This document shows positions 33,766-44,462 of a DNA stretch of 64,000 nucleotides, one piece after another (position 1 is the stretch's first letter; every line of letters begins with the position of its first letter). The notes beneath the pieces are model-generated. The model was not told the origin of the DNA, searched no databases, and saw nothing but the letters and a program-made list of their open reading frames with translations. Source of the DNA: Citricoccus sp. K5 (GTDB lineage: Bacteria > Actinomycetota > Actinomycetes > Actinomycetales > Micrococcaceae); contig NZ_LR732817.1 of assembly GCF_902506195.1 (NCBI RefSeq), positions 1,954,985 to 2,018,984 of the forward strand. The letters run 5' to 3'. The translations under genes and the position numbers were made by a program.

Positions 33766-34545
33766 ATGGCTTCGGCCGAGCTCAACCCTTCCTCCGGCCT
33801 CCCTCTTTACCGGCAGATCAAGGACATCCTGAGACGGGAAATCGCTGACGGGACGGCCGGGCCCGAAACCCCCATGACCGAAGCCCTGTTGCTGAAGCGC
33901 TTTGAGGTGAGCCTGGCCCCCATTCGTCAGGCGCTCCGGGAGTTGGCCACTGAAGGATACGTCTACCGCAAGCAGGGCAAGGGCACGTTCCCGGTCCCCG
34001 GGTCCCGCGTCCACCGGCCCGCCGATGTGCGGCTGGGCGCCCTCCACGACTACCTGGCCGACCGGGGGCTGAATCCCACCTCGACCGTCATCGGCCTGGA
34101 ATGGACCGAACCGACCGATCGGCTGCGGTCGGCCCTGAACCTGGATTCTGGGCCGGGGCCCCTGATCGACGGATCCATCACGGCGGACGATCGGTTGCTG
34201 CACATCACCCGCCTCATCTCGGTGGACGGCCGGCCCATCGCCCGCCCGGAGGTGCACCTGCGGGTTCCCCGGGGCTTCGATCCGACCGCCGCGGAGCTCG
34301 AGGAGCACGGCTCGGCCTTCACCCTGCTGGAGCGTGACCACGGCCTCGTCCTGGACCACGCCGAGCACGACGTGTGGGCCACGGAGGCCACCGCCGCCCA
34401 GGCCGAGACCCTCGCGGTGGCCGTGGGGAGCCCGCTGCTCGCCATCGAGACCCTTTTCTTCGCCGCTGGCGGCTGGCCGGTCGGCTTCCGCTCGGCCGTG
34501 CACCGCGCCGACGACTTCAAGTACCGGTTCGTCGAGCGCCGCTGA
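33766..34545 (+). CDS. GntR-family transcriptional regulator with UTRA domain (HutC type)
   Basis: 259 residues. The N-terminal winged helix (about 10-75) has YRQIKDILRREIADG, TEALLLKRFEVSLAPIRQALRELATEGYVYRKQGKGTF. The C-terminal UTRA ligand-binding domain (about 90-255) ends in FFAAGGWPVGFRSAVHRADDFKYRF. It lies directly upstream of the phosphotriesterase-like operon on the same strand and is probably its repressor, with a small ligand from the pathway. The ATG has GAGGGGAC upstream. Confidence 0.9.
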   Translation: MASAELNPSSGLPLYRQIKDILRREIADGTAGPETPMTEALLLKRFEVSLAPIRQALRELATEGYVYRKQGKGTFPVPGSRVHRPADVRLGALHDYLADRGLNPTSTVIGLEWTEPTDRLRSALNLDSGPGPLIDGSITADDRLLHITRLISVDGRPIARPEVHLRVPRGFDPTAAELEEHGSAFTLLERDHGLVLDHAEHDVWATEATAAQAETLAVAVGSPLLAIETLFFAAGGWPVGFRSAVHRADDFKYRFVERR

Positions 34546-34590: not shown

Positions 34591-34660
34591 CGCTGTGACC
34601 TACTTGCTGTGACCTACTTGCTGTGACCTACTTGCTGTGACCTGCTCGCTGTGACCTGCT
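34591..34660. repeat. 14-bp tandem repeat x5 in the operon promoter region
   Basis: Units (t/c)gctgtgacct(a/g)ct at 34591, 34605, 34619, 34633 and 34647. The last unit runs into the -35 hexamer. Each carries tgtgacct. It lies between the GntR gene and the first structural gene, so a regulatory role is plausible. Confidence 0.9.
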
Positions 34661-34691
34661 TGACTTTCACAAGACACGGTGTCAATCTAAT
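34660..34691 (+). promoter_or_regulatory. Putative promoter and operator of the phosphotriesterase-like operon
   Basis: TTGACT at 34660-34665 as -35; caatct at 34683-34688 as -10 after a 17-bp spacer. Between them lies the palindrome gacac-g-gtgtc (34673-34683), well placed for a GntR repressor. The transcript would have a leader of about 60 nt before the ATG at 34752. Confidence 0.55.
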
Positions 34692-34751: not shown

Positions 34752-35777
34752 ATGACGGCAACCCCCGCGGCGGATCGCCACTCCGCACCCCATGCCCCCA
34801 CTGTCAACACGGTGCTGGGACCGGTTCCGGCAGGGGACCTGGGGGTCGTGGCCGTCCATGAGGCCCTGCTCTCGGTGCTGCCGGGGGCGCAGTACTCGCC
34901 GTTCATCTCGATGGACCGCGCGGAGATCTATGAGGCGCTGGAGGCCAAGGTCCTCGCCTTCCGTGAGGCCGGCGGAGGTACCATCGTCGACTCCACCGGG
35001 ATGTTCCACGGACGGGATCTGACGCTCTACGAAGCCCTCTCCAAGGCCACTGGCGTGCACATCGTCGCCTCGACCGGCCTGGGCCCGGAGGAGGAGCTGG
35101 GCGGGTACTTCCTGACCCCGCAGACGAATCCGCCCACCCCGTGGCCGGCGGAGAAGTTCGAGAAGCTCTTCGGCCAGGAGGTCACGGAAGGCATGGTGGT
35201 CCCCCGCATCGAGCGCCGCGCGGCTGCCGGAATTGTTGCCACCGTTGCCGACCGGGCAGGCATGACCGCCACCGAGGAGTCCCTGTTCCGCGGCTCCGCC
35301 CGCGCGGCCCGGAACACCGGCGTCCCGGTCTCCATCCGCTGTGGTGCCGATGCCGTGCCTGACCTGGATATCGTCCTGGACGAGCAGCTCGGTGCCGACC
35401 GGGTGCTCGTGGGAGATATGGACCGCCGGCCCACCCCGGGTGCGACGGCCGAGAAGGTCACCGAGGTCGCCACTGCGGTGGCCGAACGTGGGGCCTTCGT
35501 GGGGATCGACCATGTGGGCCTGAACGACAGCCCCGACTACCTCACCGACGCCGATCGCGCCACCCTGGTCCTGGACCTGGTCGCCGCCGGCCACACCGAC
35601 AAGATCATCCTGTCCTCCAACGCGATCGGCGTCGCCAAGGGCCTTCCGGACTACGACCTGCCCTATGGCCATGTCCTGCAGACGTTCATCCCGTTCCTGA
35701 AGGGCCAGGGGTTCAGCGACGAGGACGCCCGGTGCATCCTCGTGGACAACCCCGCCCGGCTGCTCACCGTGCGGTGA
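34752..35777 (+). CDS. Phosphotriesterase-fold protein with degenerate metal site (pseudoenzyme candidate)
   Basis: 341 residues from ATG 34752, with GAAAGG at good spacing. It aligns along its length with the next gene product, beginning TVNTVLGPVPAGDLGVVAVHEA versus KVNTVLGTIPAAELGIVAIHEH. The binuclear metal ligands of the amidohydrolase fold are lost: HxH is HEA, the carboxylated Lys position (AGVIK in the paralogue) is AGIVA, the next His (ILTH) is VSIR, the following His (VLFGH) is VLVGD and the Asp (GVD) is SSN. Fold and loop motifs such as TGMFHGRDLTLYEALS are kept. A regulatory, binding or altered-chemistry role is inferred. The product is intact, without frameshift. Confidence 0.85.
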   Translation: MTATPAADRHSAPHAPTVNTVLGPVPAGDLGVVAVHEALLSVLPGAQYSPFISMDRAEIYEALEAKVLAFREAGGGTIVDSTGMFHGRDLTLYEALSKATGVHIVASTGLGPEEELGGYFLTPQTNPPTPWPAEKFEKLFGQEVTEGMVVPRIERRAAAGIVATVADRAGMTATEESLFRGSARAARNTGVPVSIRCGADAVPDLDIVLDEQLGADRVLVGDMDRRPTPGATAEKVTEVATAVAERGAFVGIDHVGLNDSPDYLTDADRATLVLDLVAAGHTDKIILSSNAIGVAKGLPDYDLPYGHVLQTFIPFLKGQGFSDEDARCILVDNPARLLTVR

Positions 35778-35851
35778 GCACGGAACCACGCAGGCCGACG
35801 ACGAGTACCCCCACCAGCTTTCAAACCCCTGAGGCAAGCAGAGGTAGAACC

Positions 35852-36805
35852 ATGACCAAAGTGAACACCGTGCTGGGCACCATCCCGGCCGCAGAACTGG
35901 GCATCGTGGCCATCCACGAACACATCGGCTACGGCATGCCGGGCTCCGAACTCGACACCCAGTGGTGGAAGACCCCGGAACAGGCCTATGAGGAGACGGT
36001 GCCGAAGCTGCGAAAGTTCCATGAGTACGGCGGGCGGACCTTCGTGGACGTCACCGGTATCTGCAACGGTCGCGATCCGAACTACTACCAATCCCTCTCC
36101 GCCAAGACCGGCGTGAACATCATCGCCTGCACCGGTTTCGTGGGCGGGGACACCGCCCTGCCCCACTTCTCCCGGGCCACCGTGGACTATCTCGCGAGGG
36201 TGTTCATCCACGAGATCACCGTGGGTATCGGCAACACCGGCGCCAAGGCCGGCGTCATCAAGGTCGGCGTGTCACGTGGCGGGAGGATGACCGAGCTGGA
36301 CCGGCGCATCTACCGCGCCGGGGCGCGCGCCGCCGTCGCGTCCGGCGTGCCGATCCTCACGCACCTGGCCATCGATCCCGAACCTGCCGTGGCCATCTTC
36401 AAGGAAGAGGGCCTGGACCTGGACCGCGTCCTGTTCGGCCACGCTGACGACGGTCTCAATGCCCCGATCACCCCTCACGACTACATCTACGAGCAGGGTG
36501 GGCGCATTGGCTTCGACACCTTCGGCTACGACCTCGAGCTACCGGACCCACCCTTCTGGGGCCGCAAGCGCGCCGAGCGCGTGGCGCACTTCAAGAAGCT
36601 CGTGGACAGGGGCTACACGGACAAGCTGATGGTCGGCGTGGACGCCAACTGCAGCCCGCTGGGCTGGCCCGGTGTCAAGGGCCACACCGTCAACTACCTC
36701 TTCGAGGACATGATCCCGGACCTCAAGGCCGCCGGCATCGACGACCAGACCCTCCACCACCTCCTCGTGGACAGCCCCGCCGAATTCCTCGGCATGAAGA
36801 ACTGA
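35852..36805 (+). CDS. Phosphotriesterase/lactonase family hydrolase
   Basis: 317 residues with the full amidohydrolase metal site: H22-x-H24 (AIHEHIGY), carboxylated lysine K137 (AGVIKVGVSRGG), H171 (ILTHLAID), H197 (VLFGHADDG) and D264 (LMVGVDAN). Relatives hydrolyse lactones, phosphotriesters or other esters, so a lactonase or esterase role in the operon's catabolic pathway is inferred; the substrate is not known. The gene lies 74 bp after its degenerate paralogue, with AGAGGT before the ATG, and 67 bp before the monooxygenase. Confidence 0.88.
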   Translation: MTKVNTVLGTIPAAELGIVAIHEHIGYGMPGSELDTQWWKTPEQAYEETVPKLRKFHEYGGRTFVDVTGICNGRDPNYYQSLSAKTGVNIIACTGFVGGDTALPHFSRATVDYLARVFIHEITVGIGNTGAKAGVIKVGVSRGGRMTELDRRIYRAGARAAVASGVPILTHLAIDPEPAVAIFKEEGLDLDRVLFGHADDGLNAPITPHDYIYEQGGRIGFDTFGYDLELPDPPFWGRKRAERVAHFKKLVDRGYTDKLMVGVDANCSPLGWPGVKGHTVNYLFEDMIPDLKAAGIDDQTLHHLLVDSPAEFLGMKN

Positions 36806-36872: not shown

Positions 36873-37988
36873 ATGAAGGCTGAAGACCTCCAGAAGTTGA
36901 ATATCGCCATCATCGGCGGCGGGTATGCCGGTGCCACCGCCGCGCTGGCCCTGCACCAGATCGGCGCGAACGTCACCGTCTACGAACAGGCCAGGCAGAT
37001 CCACGAGGTCGGTGCGGGCATCGGTCTGCGCCCGGCCGTCATCAAGCTGTTCCGCAAGCTGGGCATCTACGAGGACATCGCGGCCGTCACCACGGCCTCC
37101 CCCTCCCACGACATCTTCGACGCCCAGGGCAACCTGATCCACTCGGAGGAGTGGCCGCACCTCAACGACGACGGCGAGGACAACAGCACCCGCTTCATCC
37201 ACCGCGGCGACTTCATCGACGTGCTGACCAGCCTGTTGCCCGAGGGCATGCTGAAGCTCAACCACAAGGCCGAGAGGATCGAGGACCACGGGGATTCCAC
37301 CACCGTGACCTTCACCAATGGCTCCGAGGTCACCGCGAACCTTGTGATCGGCGCCGACGGCATCAAGTCCAAGGTGCGCACCCTGTTCTCGGACCACCAG
37401 CCGGTCTTCGCCCGTTGCCACGCCTACCGGATCGTCATCGACGCTGAGGATGCCGAGGGGCTGATGACGGATGACGCCTTCCGGATGTACATCGACAAGG
37501 AGACCAACGGCATGATCTACTTCCTGCCGCTGCGCCACCGCAACCAGGTCTCCTTCGACATCACCGTCCCCAGCGAGGACTCCTCCTGGAACCCGCAGGT
37601 CACCCGCGAGGAGGTCCTACACTCGATCCGGAACTTCGACGACCGGCTGAAGCGGATCGTGCAGAAGCTGGACATGGACCAGCTGAACGCCCGTTCGGCC
37701 CACGACATCGACCCGGTGGACGTGTGGAACTCCAGGTCCGTGGCCCTCATCGGCGACGCCGCGCACGCCATGCTGCACCACCAGGGCCAGGGCGCGAATT
37801 CCGCCGTGCTCGACGGCGGCATCCTCGCCGATCAGCTGGTCGCCTCCGCCACGGTGGCCGAGGCCCTCGCCGCCTACACCGCAGAGCGCAAGGAGCCCAC
37901 CCAGGCCCTGCAGAGGATCTCCCGCGCCTCCTGGGATCCCAACGCCATCACCACCGCCTTCCCCGAGAAGGAAGCCATCGACTACTGA
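36873..37988 (+). CDS. FAD-dependent aromatic monooxygenase (class A flavoprotein hydroxylase)
   Basis: 371 residues. The N-terminal FAD dinucleotide fold is IAIIGGGYAGATAALAL, the DG motif NLVIGADGIKSKVRTLF and the second FAD motif VALIGDAAHAMLHHQGQGAN are all present. These are the three hallmarks of group A single-component hydroxylases, the salicylate hydroxylase/6-hydroxynicotinate 3-monooxygenase lineage. The reaction is NAD(P)H- and O2-dependent hydroxylation of an aromatic ring; the ring is not identifiable from sequence. The operon suggests that it acts before or after the hydrolases. Confidence 0.88.
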   Translation: MKAEDLQKLNIAIIGGGYAGATAALALHQIGANVTVYEQARQIHEVGAGIGLRPAVIKLFRKLGIYEDIAAVTTASPSHDIFDAQGNLIHSEEWPHLNDDGEDNSTRFIHRGDFIDVLTSLLPEGMLKLNHKAERIEDHGDSTTVTFTNGSEVTANLVIGADGIKSKVRTLFSDHQPVFARCHAYRIVIDAEDAEGLMTDDAFRMYIDKETNGMIYFLPLRHRNQVSFDITVPSEDSSWNPQVTREEVLHSIRNFDDRLKRIVQKLDMDQLNARSAHDIDPVDVWNSRSVALIGDAAHAMLHHQGQGANSAVLDGGILADQLVASATVAEALAAYTAERKEPTQALQRISRASWDPNAITTAFPEKEAIDY

Positions 37989-38096: not shown

Positions 38097-39059
38097 ATGA
38101 ACCAGCAGCCCCAGACCGACCCCCGGATCCATCCGCAGATCGCCGAGATCCTCGCCCACATCCCCGCGTCCGACGGTTCCGCTCCCAGCCTCGAGGGCTG
38201 GCGCGGGGCCGAGGAGTCCCGCGTGCCCGCACCGGCCGAGCGCACCCCGCAACTGCCCGGGGTGAGGGACGCGGTGGCCGCCGCCGCACACGGGGACGTC
38301 CCGGTGCGGATCTACACCCCGGACGAGCGGGAGCGGAGCGGCGTGATCGTGTACTTCCACGGCGGTGCGTTCTTCTCCGGATCCCTGGACACCCACGACG
38401 GCGCCGCCCGGGCACTGTCGGTTGAGTCCGGCCTGACCGTGGTGTCCGTGGGCTACCGGCGGGTCCCGGAGGACGCCTTCCCGGCCGGTCTGGAGGACTG
38501 CTACGGCGTGGTCCGCTGGGCCGCCGAGCATGGCAGCGAGCAGCTGGGCTGGGACGGCGGCACCCTCGCGGTGGCCGGAGACAGCTCCGGCGGCACCTAC
38601 GCCGCCGCCGTCACCGGCATGGCCCGGGACGAGGGCTTCGTGGGCATCACCCATCAGGTGCTGCTCTACCCCTCCGTCGACCTGGACTTCACCGAGGCCG
38701 GCACCGCGCGGTACCCCTCCCGAACGGAGAACGCCACCGGCTACGGCCTGGAGACCGCTGGGCTGGTGGGCCACAACTCCTTCTACTTGGACTCCGGTGC
38801 CGACCCGACCGACCCCCTGGTCTCCCCCATCCGGCGGGACGACCTCTCCGGGCTGCCGAAGGCCCTCATCATCACCGCCCAGTTCGACCCGCTGCGGGAC
38901 GAGGGCGAGGCCTATGCCGCACGCCTCCGCCAGGCCGGCGTGGAGGCCACCGTCAGCCGGTACGGCAGCGCCAACCACGGCTTCATGGTCAACTTCGCCT
39001 GGATCCCGGAGCTCTACGAGGCGTTCACCGAGGTCGGGCGCTTCCTGCAGCAGGCCTGA
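38097..39059 (+). CDS. Alpha/beta hydrolase of the hormone-sensitive lipase family (esterase)
   Basis: 320 residues. Oxyanion hole HGGAFFSGSLDTHDG, nucleophile elbow GDSSGGTYAAAV, acid in AQFDPLRDEGEAYA, His in SANHGFMVNF: the complete HSL-type triad. It is a cytoplasmic carboxylesterase acting on short acyl esters. ATG 38097 has AAAGGATC upstream. It ends the operon, convergent with the MFS gene across a perfect palindromic terminator. Confidence 0.9.
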   Translation: MNQQPQTDPRIHPQIAEILAHIPASDGSAPSLEGWRGAEESRVPAPAERTPQLPGVRDAVAAAAHGDVPVRIYTPDERERSGVIVYFHGGAFFSGSLDTHDGAARALSVESGLTVVSVGYRRVPEDAFPAGLEDCYGVVRWAAEHGSEQLGWDGGTLAVAGDSSGGTYAAAVTGMARDEGFVGITHQVLLYPSVDLDFTEAGTARYPSRTENATGYGLETAGLVGHNSFYLDSGADPTDPLVSPIRRDDLSGLPKALIITAQFDPLRDEGEAYAARLRQAGVEATVSRYGSANHGFMVNFAWIPELYEAFTEVGRFLQQA

Positions 39060-39168: not shown

Positions 39169-40833
39169 CTAGCGGGCGCTGGCGCCCTCCGGCCGGGCCG
39201 TCACGGCTCCGGGCAGCGGCTCAGTCAACAACTCCTGCTCGGCGACAGGCTCCGGGGCGCTGCGCAGGCCGAACAGCACGAGCAGGGCCGAGGCCGCGGC
39301 GGCCAGGGCGCACACGAGGAACGCCGTGCCGAAGCCGCTGCCGAGCGCCTGCAGGGCCAGTTCCGCGGCCGCGCCGCCGGGGGCGTCCGCCGGGATGGAG
39401 TTCAGGGCGAACGGTCCGCCTGCCTCGAAGATGCCCTGGGCGGGCCCCAACTGGTCCGCCGGCAGGGTGGAGGTGGCCAGGGAGGCACCCAGCTGACCGG
39501 CCGCGCCGGACAGGGCCACGGCACCGACCAGGACCGGGCCCAGGGCGAAGCCGAGGTCCCGCAGCAGGTTGGTGGTGGCACTGGCCATGCCGGCCAGCTC
39601 CCGGGGCACCGTGTTGATGGCCAGCGCCGTCATGGGGCTCAGGGTGAAGGCGAAGCCGAGACCGGTGAACAGGGCCGGCAGCAGGAACTGCCCCATGGAG
39701 TGGTCGGTGGCGTCCAGGGTGGTGGCCCCGAGCAGGCCGCCCAGGGCCAGCAGGCCGAGTCCGGCCGTGAGGATCCAGCGGTCCGCCACGCGGGTCATCA
39801 GCCAGGAGATGAGCGGGATCAGCACGAACGCGGGACCCTGCAGCAGCAGGAACAGCAGGCCGATGTTGATCGGGTTCTGGTGCTGGACCGGGCCCAGCCA
39901 CATGGAGAAGGAGAAGCAGATGCCCAGGAAGGCGAACATGCCCACCACGGCGATGATCGAGGTGATCGAGTAGTTCACGTTGCGGAACAGGGAGAGCTTG
40001 AGCAGCGGGTGCTCCACGCGGGTCTCGATGACCACGAACACGGCCAGCAGGATGACACCGGCCACCAGGCTGTACATCACCGAGGGGGTGCCCCAGCCGG
40101 ACTCCGGCCCCTGGACCAGGCCGAACAGCACCAGGATCAGGCCCAGCGCGAAGGTGATCTGGCCCCACAGGTCCATGCGCCGCCCGGACTGAGAGGTCGA
40201 CTCGGCGGAGAACGCCAGGCACGTCGCCACCACCGCGAGGCCCAGGACGACCACGACGCCGTAGGACCACTGCCAGGCGCCGGCCTGCGCGAACCCACCT
40301 CCCAGCAGCGGGGCGACGATGCCGCCGGCGGACAGGCAGCCCGCCCAGACGGCGATGGCCCGGGCCCGCTGCTGCGGGGTGACCGTCACGGCGGCGACCA
40401 GGGCCAGCGACGCCGGGTACATGGCCCCGGCGCCGAGGCCGTTGATGGCCGATCCGACCCACATCATCTGGACGGACGGGGCGAGCGCGCAGACGAGGGA
40501 GCCGATGGCGAGCACCACGGCGCCGATGATCGTCAGGCGGCGGTAGCCGAACCGGTCACCGAGCATGCCGAAGGTCAGCTCGAAGACCACCACGGGGATC
40601 ATGAACCCGGCGGTGATCCAGGTCAGCTGGGATCCGACCGTGCCGAAGTACTGCTGGAACGTGCCGTTGAGGGCGCCGGGCAGGGCGTTGGCCAGCTGGG
40701 CGACCAGGACGGCGACGGCGGCCGCGAAGATCGTTCCGTTGATCTTCGTCAGGCGAGGTGCATCCGGTCCGGCAGGGGTTGGACCGGATGCGGCAGGACC
40801 GGACACGGTCCGATCCTCGGTGGGGGTGGTCAT
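39169..40833 (-). CDS. MFS drug/solute exporter, DHA2-like with 14 helices
   Basis: 554 residues from ATG 40833, with AGGAG just upstream. A 14-segment major facilitator of the EmrB/QacA kind: FGMLGDRFGYRRLTIIG (motif A), NGLGAGAMYPASLALVAA (motif C-like region), and ITAGFMIPVVVFELT. Such exporters extrude drugs or metabolites; import of the pathway substrate cannot be excluded. It is preceded by a TetR gene in the same direction and has its own promoter with a palindrome at 40894-40923. Confidence 0.88.
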   Translation of the reverse strand: MTTPTEDRTVSGPAASGPTPAGPDAPRLTKINGTIFAAAVAVLVAQLANALPGALNGTFQQYFGTVGSQLTWITAGFMIPVVVFELTFGMLGDRFGYRRLTIIGAVVLAIGSLVCALAPSVQMMWVGSAINGLGAGAMYPASLALVAAVTVTPQQRARAIAVWAGCLSAGGIVAPLLGGGFAQAGAWQWSYGVVVVLGLAVVATCLAFSAESTSQSGRRMDLWGQITFALGLILVLFGLVQGPESGWGTPSVMYSLVAGVILLAVFVVIETRVEHPLLKLSLFRNVNYSITSIIAVVGMFAFLGICFSFSMWLGPVQHQNPINIGLLFLLLQGPAFVLIPLISWLMTRVADRWILTAGLGLLALGGLLGATTLDATDHSMGQFLLPALFTGLGFAFTLSPMTALAINTVPRELAGMASATTNLLRDLGFALGPVLVGAVALSGAAGQLGASLATSTLPADQLGPAQGIFEAGGPFALNSIPADAPGGAAAELALQALGSGFGTAFLVCALAAAASALLVLFGLRSAPEPVAEQELLTEPLPGAVTARPEGASAR

Positions 40834-40893
40834 GGGGACTCCTGGGAGACGGTGGGAGCCGGAGGGTGGCGGGCGCCACGGGTGCTCGTGATC

Positions 40894-40923
40894 AGTATCA
40901 CCACTCACGAGACAGACTGTCAA
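40894..40923 (-). promoter_or_regulatory. Promoter of the MFS gene with overlapping palindrome
   Basis: On the minus strand, TTGACA (40923-40918) and gatact (40899-40894) are 18 bp apart. The palindrome gacag-a-ctgtc (40911-40921) covers the -35, and outer repeats cactcac (40902-40908) and gtgagtg (40933-40939) flank it. TetR control is inferred. Confidence 0.6.
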
Positions 40924-41003: not shown

Positions 41004-41597
41004 TCAGACGGCCTCACACAGCAGGCCGGTCCAGGAAGCGGTCATCTGCTCGAGGAGTTCCTCCCGGTCGATGGTCCAGCCCAGGCGGAACCAGCGCTGG
41101 GACATGAAGATCAGCTGGCCGAAGGCGATCGAACAGCGGATCCGGCGGCTGGCCGGGTCGAACCGGTCGGCGGCATCGAGCCCCGACTCCATGGCGCCGA
41201 TGGCCCGGTCATGCCAGGCGTCCAGGGCCGACTGGATCTCCGGGTCGGCCGCGGCGGCCTGGAGCGAGATCATCATGTACGGCTTGATCTCCGGCCACTG
41301 GTCGAATTTGAGTCCGAGGAACGCCCGGATCGTCGCCGGATCGTTGGAGGCGACCATCTCCGGCAGCGGCGGCCGGTCGGCGCTCGTGAGCAGCTCGTCG
41401 GCACGCTCCACGATGAAGCGGACGAGCTCGGCCTTGGAGGTGAAATGCAGGTAGAACGTGGCACGCGTGGCGCCGGCCGCCAGGGCGATCTGGTCCACCG
41501 TGGTGGGCCCGTAGCCCTTCTCCGTCATGACCTCCACACCGGCGTCCAGTAGGAGTTGACGCGTCATACGCTTTTGCGCTTCTCGGAGGTTGGCCAT
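41004..41597 (-). CDS. TetR-family transcriptional regulator
   Basis: 197 residues from ATG 41597 (a GTG 6 bp earlier is possible). The N-terminal helix-turn-helix is TRQLLLDAGVEVMTEKGYGPTTVDQIALAAGATRATFYLHFTSKAELV. The C-terminal domain is ligand-binding and unrelated to well-known subgroups. It sits 11 bp after the MBL-fold gene, cotranscribed, and 171 bp before the MFS gene, whose promoter palindrome is the likely operator. Confidence 0.9.
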   Translation of the reverse strand: MANLREAQKRMTRQLLLDAGVEVMTEKGYGPTTVDQIALAAGATRATFYLHFTSKAELVRFIVERADELLTSADRPPLPEMVASNDPATIRAFLGLKFDQWPEIKPYMMISLQAAAADPEIQSALDAWHDRAIGAMESGLDAADRFDPASRRIRCSIAFGQLIFMSQRWFRLGWTIDREELLEQMTASWTGLLCEAV

Positions 41598-41608
41598 GGT
41601 CACCCAGC

Positions 41609-42547
41609 CTAGCGTCCGGCGCCCCGCTCCCGCTGGTAGCCGCCGAGGGTGGTGAAGAAGGGCGAGGGTTCCAGGGCCGGGTCGCCGGTGTAGCCGAGGT
41701 CCTCGGCGACCGAGGCGAACGGCGAGTACGGCGAATCGGACTCGACCGGGCCGGCGTCGAGCGCCCTGACGGCCGCCTCGCGGACCCGCGCCTCGACCTC
41801 GAGGGACTCCTGCAGGGCCGCCCGAGCGGTGTCCGCGTCCATGCCGATCTCGAAGGGGACCCCCGCGGTGGAGCGGTAGGGGTGGCCGAGATACAGGCGC
41901 TGCGGACGCACCTCGTCCTTCAGGTATTCGAGGGAGGACCGGTAGGCGGCGGGGTCCTCATATCCCGGGAAGTGGTTGGCGGCCCCGTGGACCTGGACCG
42001 CGTCGCCCACGAAGACGGCGTTCTGGTCCTCCACCACGTACGCCACCGAACCCGGCGTATGGCCCGGGATGTGGCGCACGGAGACGGCGACGCCCCCGAG
42101 GTCGAGCACCTCGCCGCCACGCACCAGCACGTGCGGCTCCATCTCCCCGGAGATGGCGTGCGCCGTGGCCGCCAGCTGCTGCTGCTCGCCCGCGGGGTTC
42201 TTCAGGTACCGGTTCCGACCCGCCAGGTACTCGTCCACGTGCGCCCGCCGGGAGCGCAGCAGGGGGGCGTCCGCCTCGTGGATCACGACCTTCGCCTTCC
42301 GGCCGGTCAGCTCCCACAGCGCATGCGCCCCGCCCAGGTGGTCGATGTGCCCGTGGGTCAGCAGGATCCACCGCACCTCCTCGATGCTCCGGCCCAGCCT
42401 CTCCAGCTCCGGCGCCATGCCCTCGGCCGGCGAGGTGGTGATGCCGGTGTCCACGATGGCGGGCTCCGGGGCGTCGATGAAGAAGCTGTAGAGCCCGAAC
42501 CGGCCCCAGGGGGAGACCAGCGGGTGGATGGCAACCGGTGCGGACAT
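41609..42547 (-). CDS. Metallo-beta-lactamase fold hydrolase
   Basis: 312 residues from ATG 42547. Zinc ligands: LTHGHIDHLGG (HxHxDH), HIPGHTPGSVAY (His), FVGDAVQVHG (Asp) and LYLGHPYRS (His). It is a typical glyoxalase II/lactonase-like MBL protein, so ester, thioester or lactone hydrolysis is likely. It heads a unit with the TetR gene and is divergent from the CocE gene. Confidence 0.88.
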   Translation of the reverse strand: MSAPVAIHPLVSPWGRFGLYSFFIDAPEPAIVDTGITTSPAEGMAPELERLGRSIEEVRWILLTHGHIDHLGGAHALWELTGRKAKVVIHEADAPLLRSRRAHVDEYLAGRNRYLKNPAGEQQQLAATAHAISGEMEPHVLVRGGEVLDLGGVAVSVRHIPGHTPGSVAYVVEDQNAVFVGDAVQVHGAANHFPGYEDPAAYRSSLEYLKDEVRPQRLYLGHPYRSTAGVPFEIGMDADTARAALQESLEVEARVREAAVRALDAGPVESDSPYSPFASVAEDLGYTGDPALEPSPFFTTLGGYQRERGAGR

Positions 42548-42658
42548 CTGAGGATCCTTGTCGTCGGGCGCCCCGTCAGGGACGCAACGAGATGGCACGG
42601 AGGTCCGGTCACCCTACCGGGCACCGTCCCGCCTGTGGTCTTGCCCACTCAACTTTAG

Positions 42659-42743: not shown

Positions 42744-44462
42744 ATGACGGAGAACCTCACCTGGAACGCCGGCGGCACGCCGATCACCATCCGCAAGGAC
42801 CTGCAGGTCCCCATGCGGGACGGGCTCGAGCTTGTGGCGGATGCCTACGAGGGAACCGAGCAGAAGCCGCGCCCGGCCCTGGTGGCCTTGAGCCCCTACG
42901 GCAAGGAGCTGCAGGCGCTGGCCCTGACCACCCCGCCCCAGCGGCGCCCCTCCCCGATGTGGGACGGCTGCATCGAGGCCGGTGACATCGCCCGGATCGT
43001 CAACGAGGACTACGTCCACGTGATCGGCGACCTGCGCGGATCCGGCGGCTCCGGCGGAGAGCACATCGGCAACTACAACGCCGGCGGGGTCTCCCTGGGC
43101 GAGGACGCCTACGACTTCATCGAGTGGGTGGCCGCGCAGCCCTGGTGTGACGGCAACGTGGGCATGGTCGGCATCTCCTACTTCGGCTCTATGCAGGTCC
43201 TGGCCGCGGCCGAGCGCCCGCCCTCGCTGAAGGCGATCTTCGTCTCCGGCGGTCACTACGACTTCTATGAGACCACGTACCACGGCGGCATCATGTGGTT
43301 CATGCCCCGGGCCGCCCGCGAGGGCCGGGGCGGCGACTCGGGCTGGGCCTTCACCGACGGCGTGAAGTCCCGCATGATCGAGGAGTTCAGCCCCGAGGAG
43401 CTGAAGGCCAAGGTGGATGAGCGGCTCGCGGACCCGGACGTGGCCGGCTGGCCGAACCTGGTCCACGTGCTGAACTACCCGAAGAACCACGAGGCCTGGT
43501 TCGACATCGTGATGAACCAGTTCGACGGCGAGTGGTACGAGGAGCGCAACCCCAACGAGCTTGCCGACCAGATCGACATCCCGGTCTGGCTGCAGCTGGA
43601 TCAGGGCCGCGGGTGGACGCTGGACAGCACCATCGAGGTCTTCGACCGCGTGCAGGGCCCGAAGAAGCTGACCATCGGCTCCTACCCGCCCATGCAGTCG
43701 CGGCCTTTCGTGGAGGAGCACGACAAGATGTTCCGCTGGTACGACTACTGGCTCAAGGGCATCGACAACGGGATCATGGACGAGCCGGCCGTGGACGTGT
43801 TCGTGGAGGGCTCCCGCGAGGTCGTCACCGCCGACCAGTGGCCGCCCAAGCCGGTCGAGCACCGGCCGCTGTACCTGCGCCCGCGCCACAAGCTCTCCAC
43901 CGAGCGGGAGCTGATGGGCACCGAGTACGCCCACCCGGACGGTTTCTACCAGGCCCCGCTGACCGTGACGGACGATGTCCAGATCCTCAGCTGGTCCACC
44001 CCGGTGTTCGAGGAGCCGGTCGAGATGATCGGCACAGGCGCCGCACACCTCTTCGCGGAGATCGACCAGCCGGACACCAACTTCATCCTGCGCCTGTGGG
44101 ACTACGCTCCGACCGGCAAGCGCCAGCTGATCACCACCGGCTACCTCAAGGCCTCCCACCGCGAGCTGGACGAGGCACGGACCTCCGAGGGCGATCCGCG
44201 GCACCCGCACACGCGGTCCGTACCGGTGGAACCGGGAACGATCGAGGAGTACGTGATCCGTCTCTACCCGTTCGCGGCCACCTTCATGCCGGGCCACCGG
44301 CTCACGGCCGAACTGTCCAACGCGGAGCCCCTGGCGGATGAGCACAACTCATTGCTGCCCCCGGACGCCTTCCACCTGCCGGTGGGCCGGCCGGTGACGC
44401 ACAAGATCTACCGGGATGCCGAGCACCCGTCCCGGCTGGTCCTGCCGTTCACCACCCAATAG
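42744..44462 (+). CDS. CocE/NonD family hydrolase (X-Pro dipeptidyl-peptidase fold)
   Basis: 572 residues with AGAAGGAG before the ATG. Nucleophile elbow GMVGISYFGSMQ, an N-terminal catalytic domain with GYLRGSGGSGGE-like DLRGSGGSGGEH, and a C-terminal jelly-roll domain (about 330-570, from PKPVEHRPLYL). Relatives include cocaine esterase and glutaryl-7-ACA acylases. The substrate is unknown. It is divergent from the MBL-TetR unit and may belong to the same catabolic process. Confidence 0.88.
   Translation: MTENLTWNAGGTPITIRKDLQVPMRDGLELVADAYEGTEQKPRPALVALSPYGKELQALALTTPPQRRPSPMWDGCIEAGDIARIVNEDYVHVIGDLRGSGGSGGEHIGNYNAGGVSLGEDAYDFIEWVAAQPWCDGNVGMVGISYFGSMQVLAAAERPPSLKAIFVSGGHYDFYETTYHGGIMWFMPRAAREGRGGDSGWAFTDGVKSRMIEEFSPEELKAKVDERLADPDVAGWPNLVHVLNYPKNHEAWFDIVMNQFDGEWYEERNPNELADQIDIPVWLQLDQGRGWTLDSTIEVFDRVQGPKKLTIGSYPPMQSRPFVEEHDKMFRWYDYWLKGIDNGIMDEPAVDVFVEGSREVVTADQWPPKPVEHRPLYLRPRHKLSTERELMGTEYAHPDGFYQAPLTVTDDVQILSWSTPVFEEPVEMIGTGAAHLFAEIDQPDTNFILRLWDYAPTGKRQLITTGYLKASHRELDEARTSEGDPRHPHTRSVPVEPGTIEEYVIRLYPFAATFMPGHRLTAELSNAEPLADEHNSLLPPDAFHLPVGRPVTHKIYRDAEHPSRLVLPFTTQ

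What the first reader, a model, noticed from the sequence alone, without database searches (positions are those of the whole stretch)
34752..36805. Phosphotriesterase pair: one member has lost its metal site
Two adjacent paralogues share the whole amidohydrolase fold, but the first lacks five of six metal ligands (second His to Ala, carboxylated Lys to Ala, His to Arg, His to Asp, Asp to Asn), while the second keeps all. The first is intact, has a good ribosome binding site and is the promoter-proximal gene, so it is probably expressed and selected. This suggests a pseudoenzyme acting as a binding or regulatory partner, a heteromer subunit, or new chemistry.
Basis: partly seen in the sequence, partly recalled or inferred. 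Interest (0 to 1): 0.75.

Follow-up and report, generated by a model that had tools for sequence, protein, structure and literature searches.

The report
Conserved metal-less partner of a phosphotriesterase
Two neighbouring bacterial genes encode sister proteins of the phosphotriesterase family; one has lost its metal-binding catalytic site yet has been kept beside its intact sister in soil bacteria of two phyla, which suggests that the 'dead' copy is a working partner protein.

Summary
ORF A (34752-35777) is a full-length phosphotriesterase (PTE) barrel with five of six metal ligands replaced (A38, A163, R196, D222, N290; only H36 kept); B (35852-36805) keeps all six. This is not decay: A is followed by B in 80 of 80 genome loci and on a Caballeronia plasmid. 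Of 82 aligned A rows none has the Lys, third His, fourth His or Asp. The Caballeronia A has also lost the first His but keeps 112 of 123 family-invariant residues. A is under purifying selection (dN/dS 0.20-0.26 against its ten nearest relatives). Orthologues of A and B hit the same genomes in three further samples. In A, loops 1-3 and the start of loop 8, where PTE-like lactonase homodimers touch, are nearly frozen, while loops 6-8 otherwise drift; B conserves both sides. Best reading: an enzyme-pseudoenzyme heterodimer (inferred, untested) in a catabolic cassette of unassigned substrate, probably aromatic. Metal-free chemistry by A is not excluded. Paper searches here found no PTE-family pseudoenzyme described.

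The parts
33766..34545 (+). GntR/UTRA-family regulator next to the pair
   Evidence: PF00392 and PF07702; relatives beside the pair in 13 of 81 loci
34660..34688 (+). putative promoter/operator TTGACTTT...ACAC..TGTC upstream of A
   Evidence: TTGACTTT shared by 10 of 13 GntR-type upstream regions; position read; function inferred
34752..35777 (+). A: PTE-family pseudoenzyme, five of six metal ligands lost
34857..34865 (+). codons H36-E37-A38 of A, where the HxH motif stood
35082..35147 (+). codons 111-132 of A: family-specific loop 3, 18 of 22 positions at 97% or more, low model confidence at 114-125
35337..35339 (+). codon R196 of A, invariant Arg in place of the third His
   Evidence: 82 of 82 rows
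35852..36805 (+). B: PTE-family protein with all six metal ligands
36873..37988 (+). flavin monooxygenase (FAD_binding_3), cassette member
   Evidence: relatives in 80 of 81 loci
38097..39059 (+). alpha/beta hydrolase (Abhydrolase_3), cassette member
   Evidence: relatives in 80 of 81 loci
39169..40923 (-). MFS transporter, DHA2 type (start codon uncertain)
   Evidence: relatives in 42 of 81 loci
41004..41603 (-). TetR-family regulator
   Evidence: relatives at a loose cut-off in 60 of 81 loci
41609..42598 (-). MBL-fold hydrolase, cassette member (start codon uncertain)
   Evidence: relatives in 79 of 81 loci
42744..44462 (+). CocE/NonD-type hydrolase, cassette member
   Evidence: aligned with the cluster-1 proteins, whose L033 member is CocE_NonD; relatives in 78 of 81 loci

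Best explanation
A is a conserved pseudoenzyme that pairs with B. Shown: A and B are PTE-family paralogues, sisters with respect to the 14 outgroup proteins used; A has lost the binuclear metal site throughout its sampled family, is kept by purifying selection, lies directly upstream of B (median gap 49 nt), and in the samples searched A and B orthologues occur only together. Inferred: the two barrels form a heterodimer with the geometry of PTE/PTE-like-lactonase homodimers; B carries out a metal-dependent ester or lactone hydrolysis; the frozen loops 1-3 and the start of loop 8 of A form the contact and help to shape or regulate the nearby active site of B. The hydrolysis is one step of a cassette (PTE pair, flavin monooxygenase, three further hydrolases, often a CYP199-like P450 system) that probably degrades an aromatic ester or lactone.
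For: A then B in 80 of 80 genome loci and on the Caballeronia plasmid. Same 8 of 148 relatives hold orthologues of A and of B, same 2 of 396 phylum genomes, same 1 of 72,556 plasmid records. dN/dS of A 0.20-0.26 against its ten nearest, median 0.276 over 2881 pairs. 123 residue positions of A at 97% or more, many different from an invariant residue of B; 112 of the 123 kept in Caballeronia A although all six ligands are gone there. Loops 1-3 of A 33 of 48 positions at 97% or more against 8 of 35 in loops 6-8; B 33 of 43 and 34 of 51. Known PTE-like lactonases are homodimers that touch through position 34 and through W263 (start of loop 8) against F104 of the other monomer, close to the active sites (PMC3468530, PMC3781021, PMC4323659; passages).
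Against: No complex was modelled or observed. A-B covariation does not stand clear of control pairs: highest mean mutual information and highest density of strong pairs of 15 protein pairs, but A-CocE and B-CocE come near and A-CocE has a higher top-20 mean. All catalytic-face loops of A together are not more conserved than opposite-face loops (46 of 94 against 18 of 39); the loop 1-3 against 6-8 split was chosen after seeing those counts. Co-occurrence fits any two proteins of one pathway. Low confidence of the invariant loops in the models may only reflect shallow alignments.
Confidence: 0.5

Rival explanations
1. A is itself an enzyme with metal-independent chemistry (lyase, isomerase or hydrolase) in a rebuilt pocket, acting one step before or after B.
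For: Invariant polar residues of A on the catalytic face (R196, E37, R88, D89, E113, D224, D253) and family-specific loops 2 and 3. A metal-independent amidohydrolase-superfamily lactonase (LigI) exists (recalled, not seen in a call).
Against: Loops 6-8, which carry substrate contacts in characterised relatives, are weakly conserved in A (8 of 35); the Asp of the ligand set is Asn, Ser, Gly or Arg; H36, H86 and K296 are lost in Caballeronia.
Confidence: 0.2
2. A is a small-molecule binding or sensor protein that regulates the cassette or carries an intermediate without a stable complex with B.
For: Conserved A-specific face with drifted substrate loops; the gene is promoter-proximal.
Against: No DNA-binding or other added domain; GntR or TetR regulators already accompany the cassette; strict pairing with B is not explained.
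Confidence: 0.15
3. A binds metal at a relocated site and is still a metallohydrolase.
For: Some His/Asp/Glu positions are conserved (E37, D80, D89, E113, E143, D253, H254).
Against: Most of these are also present in B or are acidic surface or fold positions; the conserved catalytic-face histidines H36 and H86 are absent in Caballeronia A.
Confidence: 0.06
4. A is a decaying duplicate or a sequencing or alignment artefact.
For: A diverges somewhat faster than B.
Against: 81 A frames of which 80 are 324 aa or longer and one 301 aa; dN/dS well below 1; family motifs kept between Actinomycetota and Caballeronia; structure superposes on PTE.
Confidence: 0.01

Closest known systems
Phosphotriesterases and PTE-like lactonases (PF02126: P. 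diminuta PTE, OpdA, SsoPox, GkL, DrOPH)
   Different: A has lost the metal site; family members are described there as homodimers, here a tandem pair of unlike sisters is fixed.
Inactive dihydroorotase partner of aspartate transcarbamoylase
   Same: An inactive amidohydrolase-type protein kept as part of an enzyme complex (PMC4581275, passages).
   Different: Its partner is a transcarbamoylase of another family; here the partner is the active sister.
LigI, metal-independent 2-pyrone-4,6-dicarboxylate lactonase (recalled, no call)
   Same: Amidohydrolase-superfamily lactonase without metal.
   Different: Other family; keeps several active-site residues that A lacks (recalled).
bxd benzoxazinoid cluster with lactonase BxdA
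   Same: Catabolic cluster with a lactonase in related Actinomycetota (PMC11297187, passages).
   Different: The main text has no mention of phosphotriesterase, P450 or monooxygenase; no sequence comparison was made here.

Membership tests
PTE family (PF02126), protein A | Sequence profile and barrel fold of the family | tested here: met
PTE family (PF02126), protein A | Binuclear metal site: HxH, carboxylated Lys, two His, Asp | tested here: not met
   HAARDN in place of HHKHHD; same loss throughout 82 aligned rows
PTE family (PF02126), protein B | Profile, fold and the six metal ligands | tested here: met
Active lactonase or phosphotriesterase, protein B | Measured hydrolysis of a lactone, ester or phosphotriester | not testable with these tools
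   no assay; B falls far below the NCBIfam cut-offs of the named PTE-family enzymes
Pseudoenzyme with an active paralogue partner | Conserved loss of catalytic residues under purifying selection | tested here: met
Pseudoenzyme with an active paralogue partner | Obligate genetic association with the active paralogue | tested here: met
   same 8 of 148; same 2 of 396; same 1 of 72,556 records
Pseudoenzyme with an active paralogue partner | Physical complex with the active paralogue | not testable with these tools
   only single-chain prediction was available; covariation was unclear
Metal-independent amidohydrolase-superfamily enzyme | Catalysis without metal | not testable with these tools
   no assay

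The most novel reading that the evidence does not exclude
A is not merely structural: with B it forms one composite enzyme, or A alone is a metal-free catalyst in the old PTE pocket, carrying out a new step of an undescribed degradation pathway in which flavin and P450 oxygenation is followed by serial ester or lactone hydrolysis.
Probability: 0.25. Interest if true: 0.8.

Novelty: new variant of a known kind. Interest (0 to 1): 0.6.

Why it matters
PTE and PTE-like lactonases are model enzymes for evolution and engineering, yet the importance of their dimer is described as unclear (PMC3468530, passage) or perhaps indispensable (PMC7084321, passage). A natural pair in which one half has lost the metal site and the other has kept it, found in two phyla, makes the question of what a second barrel does for the first directly testable. 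It also marks a widespread cassette of unassigned function: relatives of the same flavin monooxygenase, alpha/beta hydrolase and MBL hydrolase lie beside the pair in 79 to 80 of 81 loci.

Tried and rejected
Pseudogene, frameshift and misalignment were considered and rejected. A relocated metal site was considered; the conserved catalytic-face histidines H36 and H86 are lost in Caballeronia. Covariation between A and B gave no clear answer. Catalytic-face against opposite-face loop conservation in A gave no difference (46 of 94 against 18 of 39). The cassette's P450 was sought elsewhere in the window's genome: best match 34% identity, so no orthologue found. PHROGs gave no match for A or B. The 50 rows shown by VIA-align for A and for B are PTE-family structures, which says nothing about folds not ranked there.

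Paper searches for a PTE-family pseudoenzyme (phosphotriesterase + pseudoenzyme; amidohydrolase superfamily + pseudoenzyme + metal ligands; catalytically inactive + phosphotriesterase family + heterodimer) returned no paper. Searches for the cassette listed 14, 0, 3 and 1 papers, none of which describes it as far as title and start of abstract show; two leads were looked at by passages and were not it (isoflavone cluster PMC11069340; bxd cluster PMC11297187). These cover only the held open-access library. A search meant for LigI listed two papers that I did not open, so LigI is recalled.

Limits: the 80 genome loci are the best 80 of 128 confirmed, found with A peptides, so they hold A by construction and favour close relatives; co-occurrence therefore rests and 13/34. 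L058, L077 and L100 were dropped before because ORFs of the cassette are broken or short there (79 rows remain, window included; 75 common rows). Of the 125 columns counted as near-invariant, two are columns where most A rows have a gap; I therefore give 123 residue positions, 112 kept. The 14 outgroup proteins are those met in the A search, not a full sample of the family, and the tool warned of long branches. SsoPox interface positions were placed on A and B by spacing from the ligands, with SsoPox ligand numbers recalled, not by a residue-level structural alignment. Several loci end within the cassette (for example L037), so absences of neighbours are partly absences of sequence.

Full report

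IT IS A FAMILY, NOT AN ACCIDENT. A scan of the collection of one genome per species confirmed 128 stretches that encode a relative of A and kept the best 80. A is followed by B in 80 of these 80, and on the Caballeronia insecticola plasmid p2. Hosts include Arthrobacter, Pseudarthrobacter, Citricoccus, Kocuria, Sinomonas, Georgenia, Microbacterium, Streptomyces, Nocardia, Nocardiopsis, Actinomadura, Micromonospora, Geodermatophilus, Blastococcus, Nonomuraea and Microbispora (record titles). Over 82 A rows (window included) the first His is His in 80 (Ser 1, gap 1), the second is Ala in 80 (Ser 1, gap 1), the Lys is Ala 58, Thr 22, Val 2, the third His is Arg 82, the fourth His is Gly 53, Asp 26, Glu, Asn and Ala 1 each, and the Asp is Asn 68, Ser 10, Gly 3, Arg 1. 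B reads HHKHHD in 80 of 82; the other two are L058 (two gaps and Arg for Lys) and L077 (gap at the Asp), both with ORFs of the cassette in pieces. The Caballeronia A has lost even the first His but keeps 112 of the 123 residue positions that are at 97% or more in the A family. So the old metal site has no essential part in what A is kept for.

SELECTION AND DESCENT. Against its ten nearest orthologues dN/dS of A is 0.20-0.26; the median over 2881 pairs is 0.276 (highest 0.592). B gives 0.12-0.21, and 0.224 over 2958 pairs (highest 0.564) (Nei-Gojobori). In a tree of 23 A, 23 B and 14 other PTE-family proteins, A and B are each one group and together are separated from the outgroups (100/98). 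All 14 outgroups keep the four His and the Asp; the Lys column is Lys in 9 and Gly in 5. The tool warned of long branches. The simplest history is a duplication with loss of the metal site in A before the sampled lineages split, and a transfer between phyla (inference; its direction is not shown).

STRICT PARTNERSHIP. Apart from the A-based scan, searches with A and with B hit, at orthologue-level identity, the same 8 of 148 relatives (own genome included; A 70% or more; B 73% or more), the same 2 of 396 genomes drawn over the phylum (A 67%, B 75% in the second; the next best are 34% and 38%), and the same single record of 72,556 plasmids (A 56.7%, next 30.2%; B 66.8%, next 33.0%). The A-B gap has a median of 49 nt; apart from one value of 239 it lies between -4 and 63, and in Caballeronia the genes overlap by 4 nt.

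WHERE A IS CONSERVED. By the models' secondary structure, loops after strands 1-3 of A have 33 of 48 positions at 97% or more and loops 6-8 have 8 of 35; B has 33 of 43 and 34 of 51. The split was chosen, so the difference is descriptive. Within loop 8 of A the invariant positions are 293-297; K296 is lost in Caballeronia. Characterised PTE-like lactonases are homodimers that bury about 1470-1770 square angstrom; they touch through position 34, and through W263 at the start of loop 8 against F104 of the other monomer (PMC3468530, PMC3781021, PMC4323659; passages). Placed by ligand spacing, these fall in loop 1, the start of loop 8 and loop 3. Thus A has kept the side that would touch a partner and let most of the substrate side drift; B has kept both. 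Parts of these invariant stretches have low confidence in the single-chain models (A 114-125; B 28-36 and 268-271), as expected of segments ordered by a partner, though shallow alignments could do the same. Results that do not help: catalytic-face loops of A as a whole are not more conserved than opposite-face loops (46 of 94 against 18 of 39); A-B covariation has the highest mean mutual information (0.103 against 0.065-0.081) and density of strong pairs (23.3 per 10,000 against 7.8-20.3) of 15 protein pairs, but A-CocE and B-CocE come near by density and A-CocE has the higher top-20 mean (8.15 against 7.18).

THE CASSETTE. Relatives around the pair, of 81 loci: flavin monooxygenase 80, alpha/beta hydrolase 80, MBL hydrolase 79, CocE/NonD hydrolase 78, TetR 60 (loose cut-off), CYP199-like P450 54, ferredoxin reductase 54, MFS 42, GntR 13. 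The P450's best solved relative is called CYP199, a group that oxidises para-substituted benzoates (recalled). The monooxygenase's best solved relatives are 6-hydroxynicotinate 3-monooxygenase, salicylate hydroxylase and tropone 2-monooxygenase. Gentisate-dioxygenase relatives lie within the fetched flank in 16 of 81, fumarylacetoacetate-hydrolase and maleylpyruvate-isomerase relatives in 22 each, 3-hydroxybenzoate-6-monooxygenase relatives in 13, CoA-transferase relatives in 13. Their best NCBIfam models are gentisate 1,2-dioxygenase, 3-hydroxybenzoate 6-monooxygenase and so on, but below the curated cut-offs except for the mycothiol-dependent isomerase domain and CocE_NonD; the CoA-transferase name is from reading the sequence only. 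This points to an aromatic substrate with ester or lactone bonds; the substrate is unknown. The window has the GntR form without the P450 module, and no P450 orthologue was found elsewhere in the genome (best 34%).

MECHANISM. I propose an A-B heterodimer of PTE-like geometry, with B as the metal hydrolase and A as the scaffold or pocket-shaping half (confidence 0.5). The main rival is metal-free chemistry by A (0.2). A precedent in the wider superfamily for an inactive partner is the inactive dihydroorotase of aspartate transcarbamoylase (PMC4581275, passages), but there the partner is of another family.

NOVELTY. Seven paper searches aimed at such a pseudoenzyme or at the cassette found no description of either; this covers only the held open-access library. 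I rate it a new variant of a known kind: pseudoenzyme partners are known, but I found none described in the PTE family that is tied to its active sister.

Noticed in passing
34592-34662: Five tandem copies of a 14-base unit (GCTGTGACCTACTT) in the region between the GntR gene and A, ending at the putative promoter.
   Followed up: partly
36873-37988: The flavin monooxygenase of this lineage differs from that of most other loci (76-77% identity to L038 and L086, 88% over 50 residues to L037, but 51-60% to most others, 54% to L043 whose A is 82% and B 87%), as if the gene had been exchanged within a conserved cassette.
   Followed up: no
L088 10001-14500: In Enteractinococcus helveticum the order after the pair is alpha/beta hydrolase then monooxygenase, the reverse of the other loci.
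   Followed up: no
41609-42598: The MBL gene is on the opposite strand to the pair here and in most GntR-type loci, but co-directional in the P450-type loci.
   Followed up: no
L058 11016-15000: In the Arthrobacter sp. Hiyo8 record B, monooxygenase, hydrolase and MBL genes are all in pieces, which looks like sequence errors; the locus was left out of later counts.
   Followed up: partly
whole window: The window is probably from Citricoccus: same-genus genomes G004 and G006 have contigs of the same length as the records L043 and L037, both named Citricoccus; G003 matches a record named Micrococcus (L038) in the same way.
   Followed up: no
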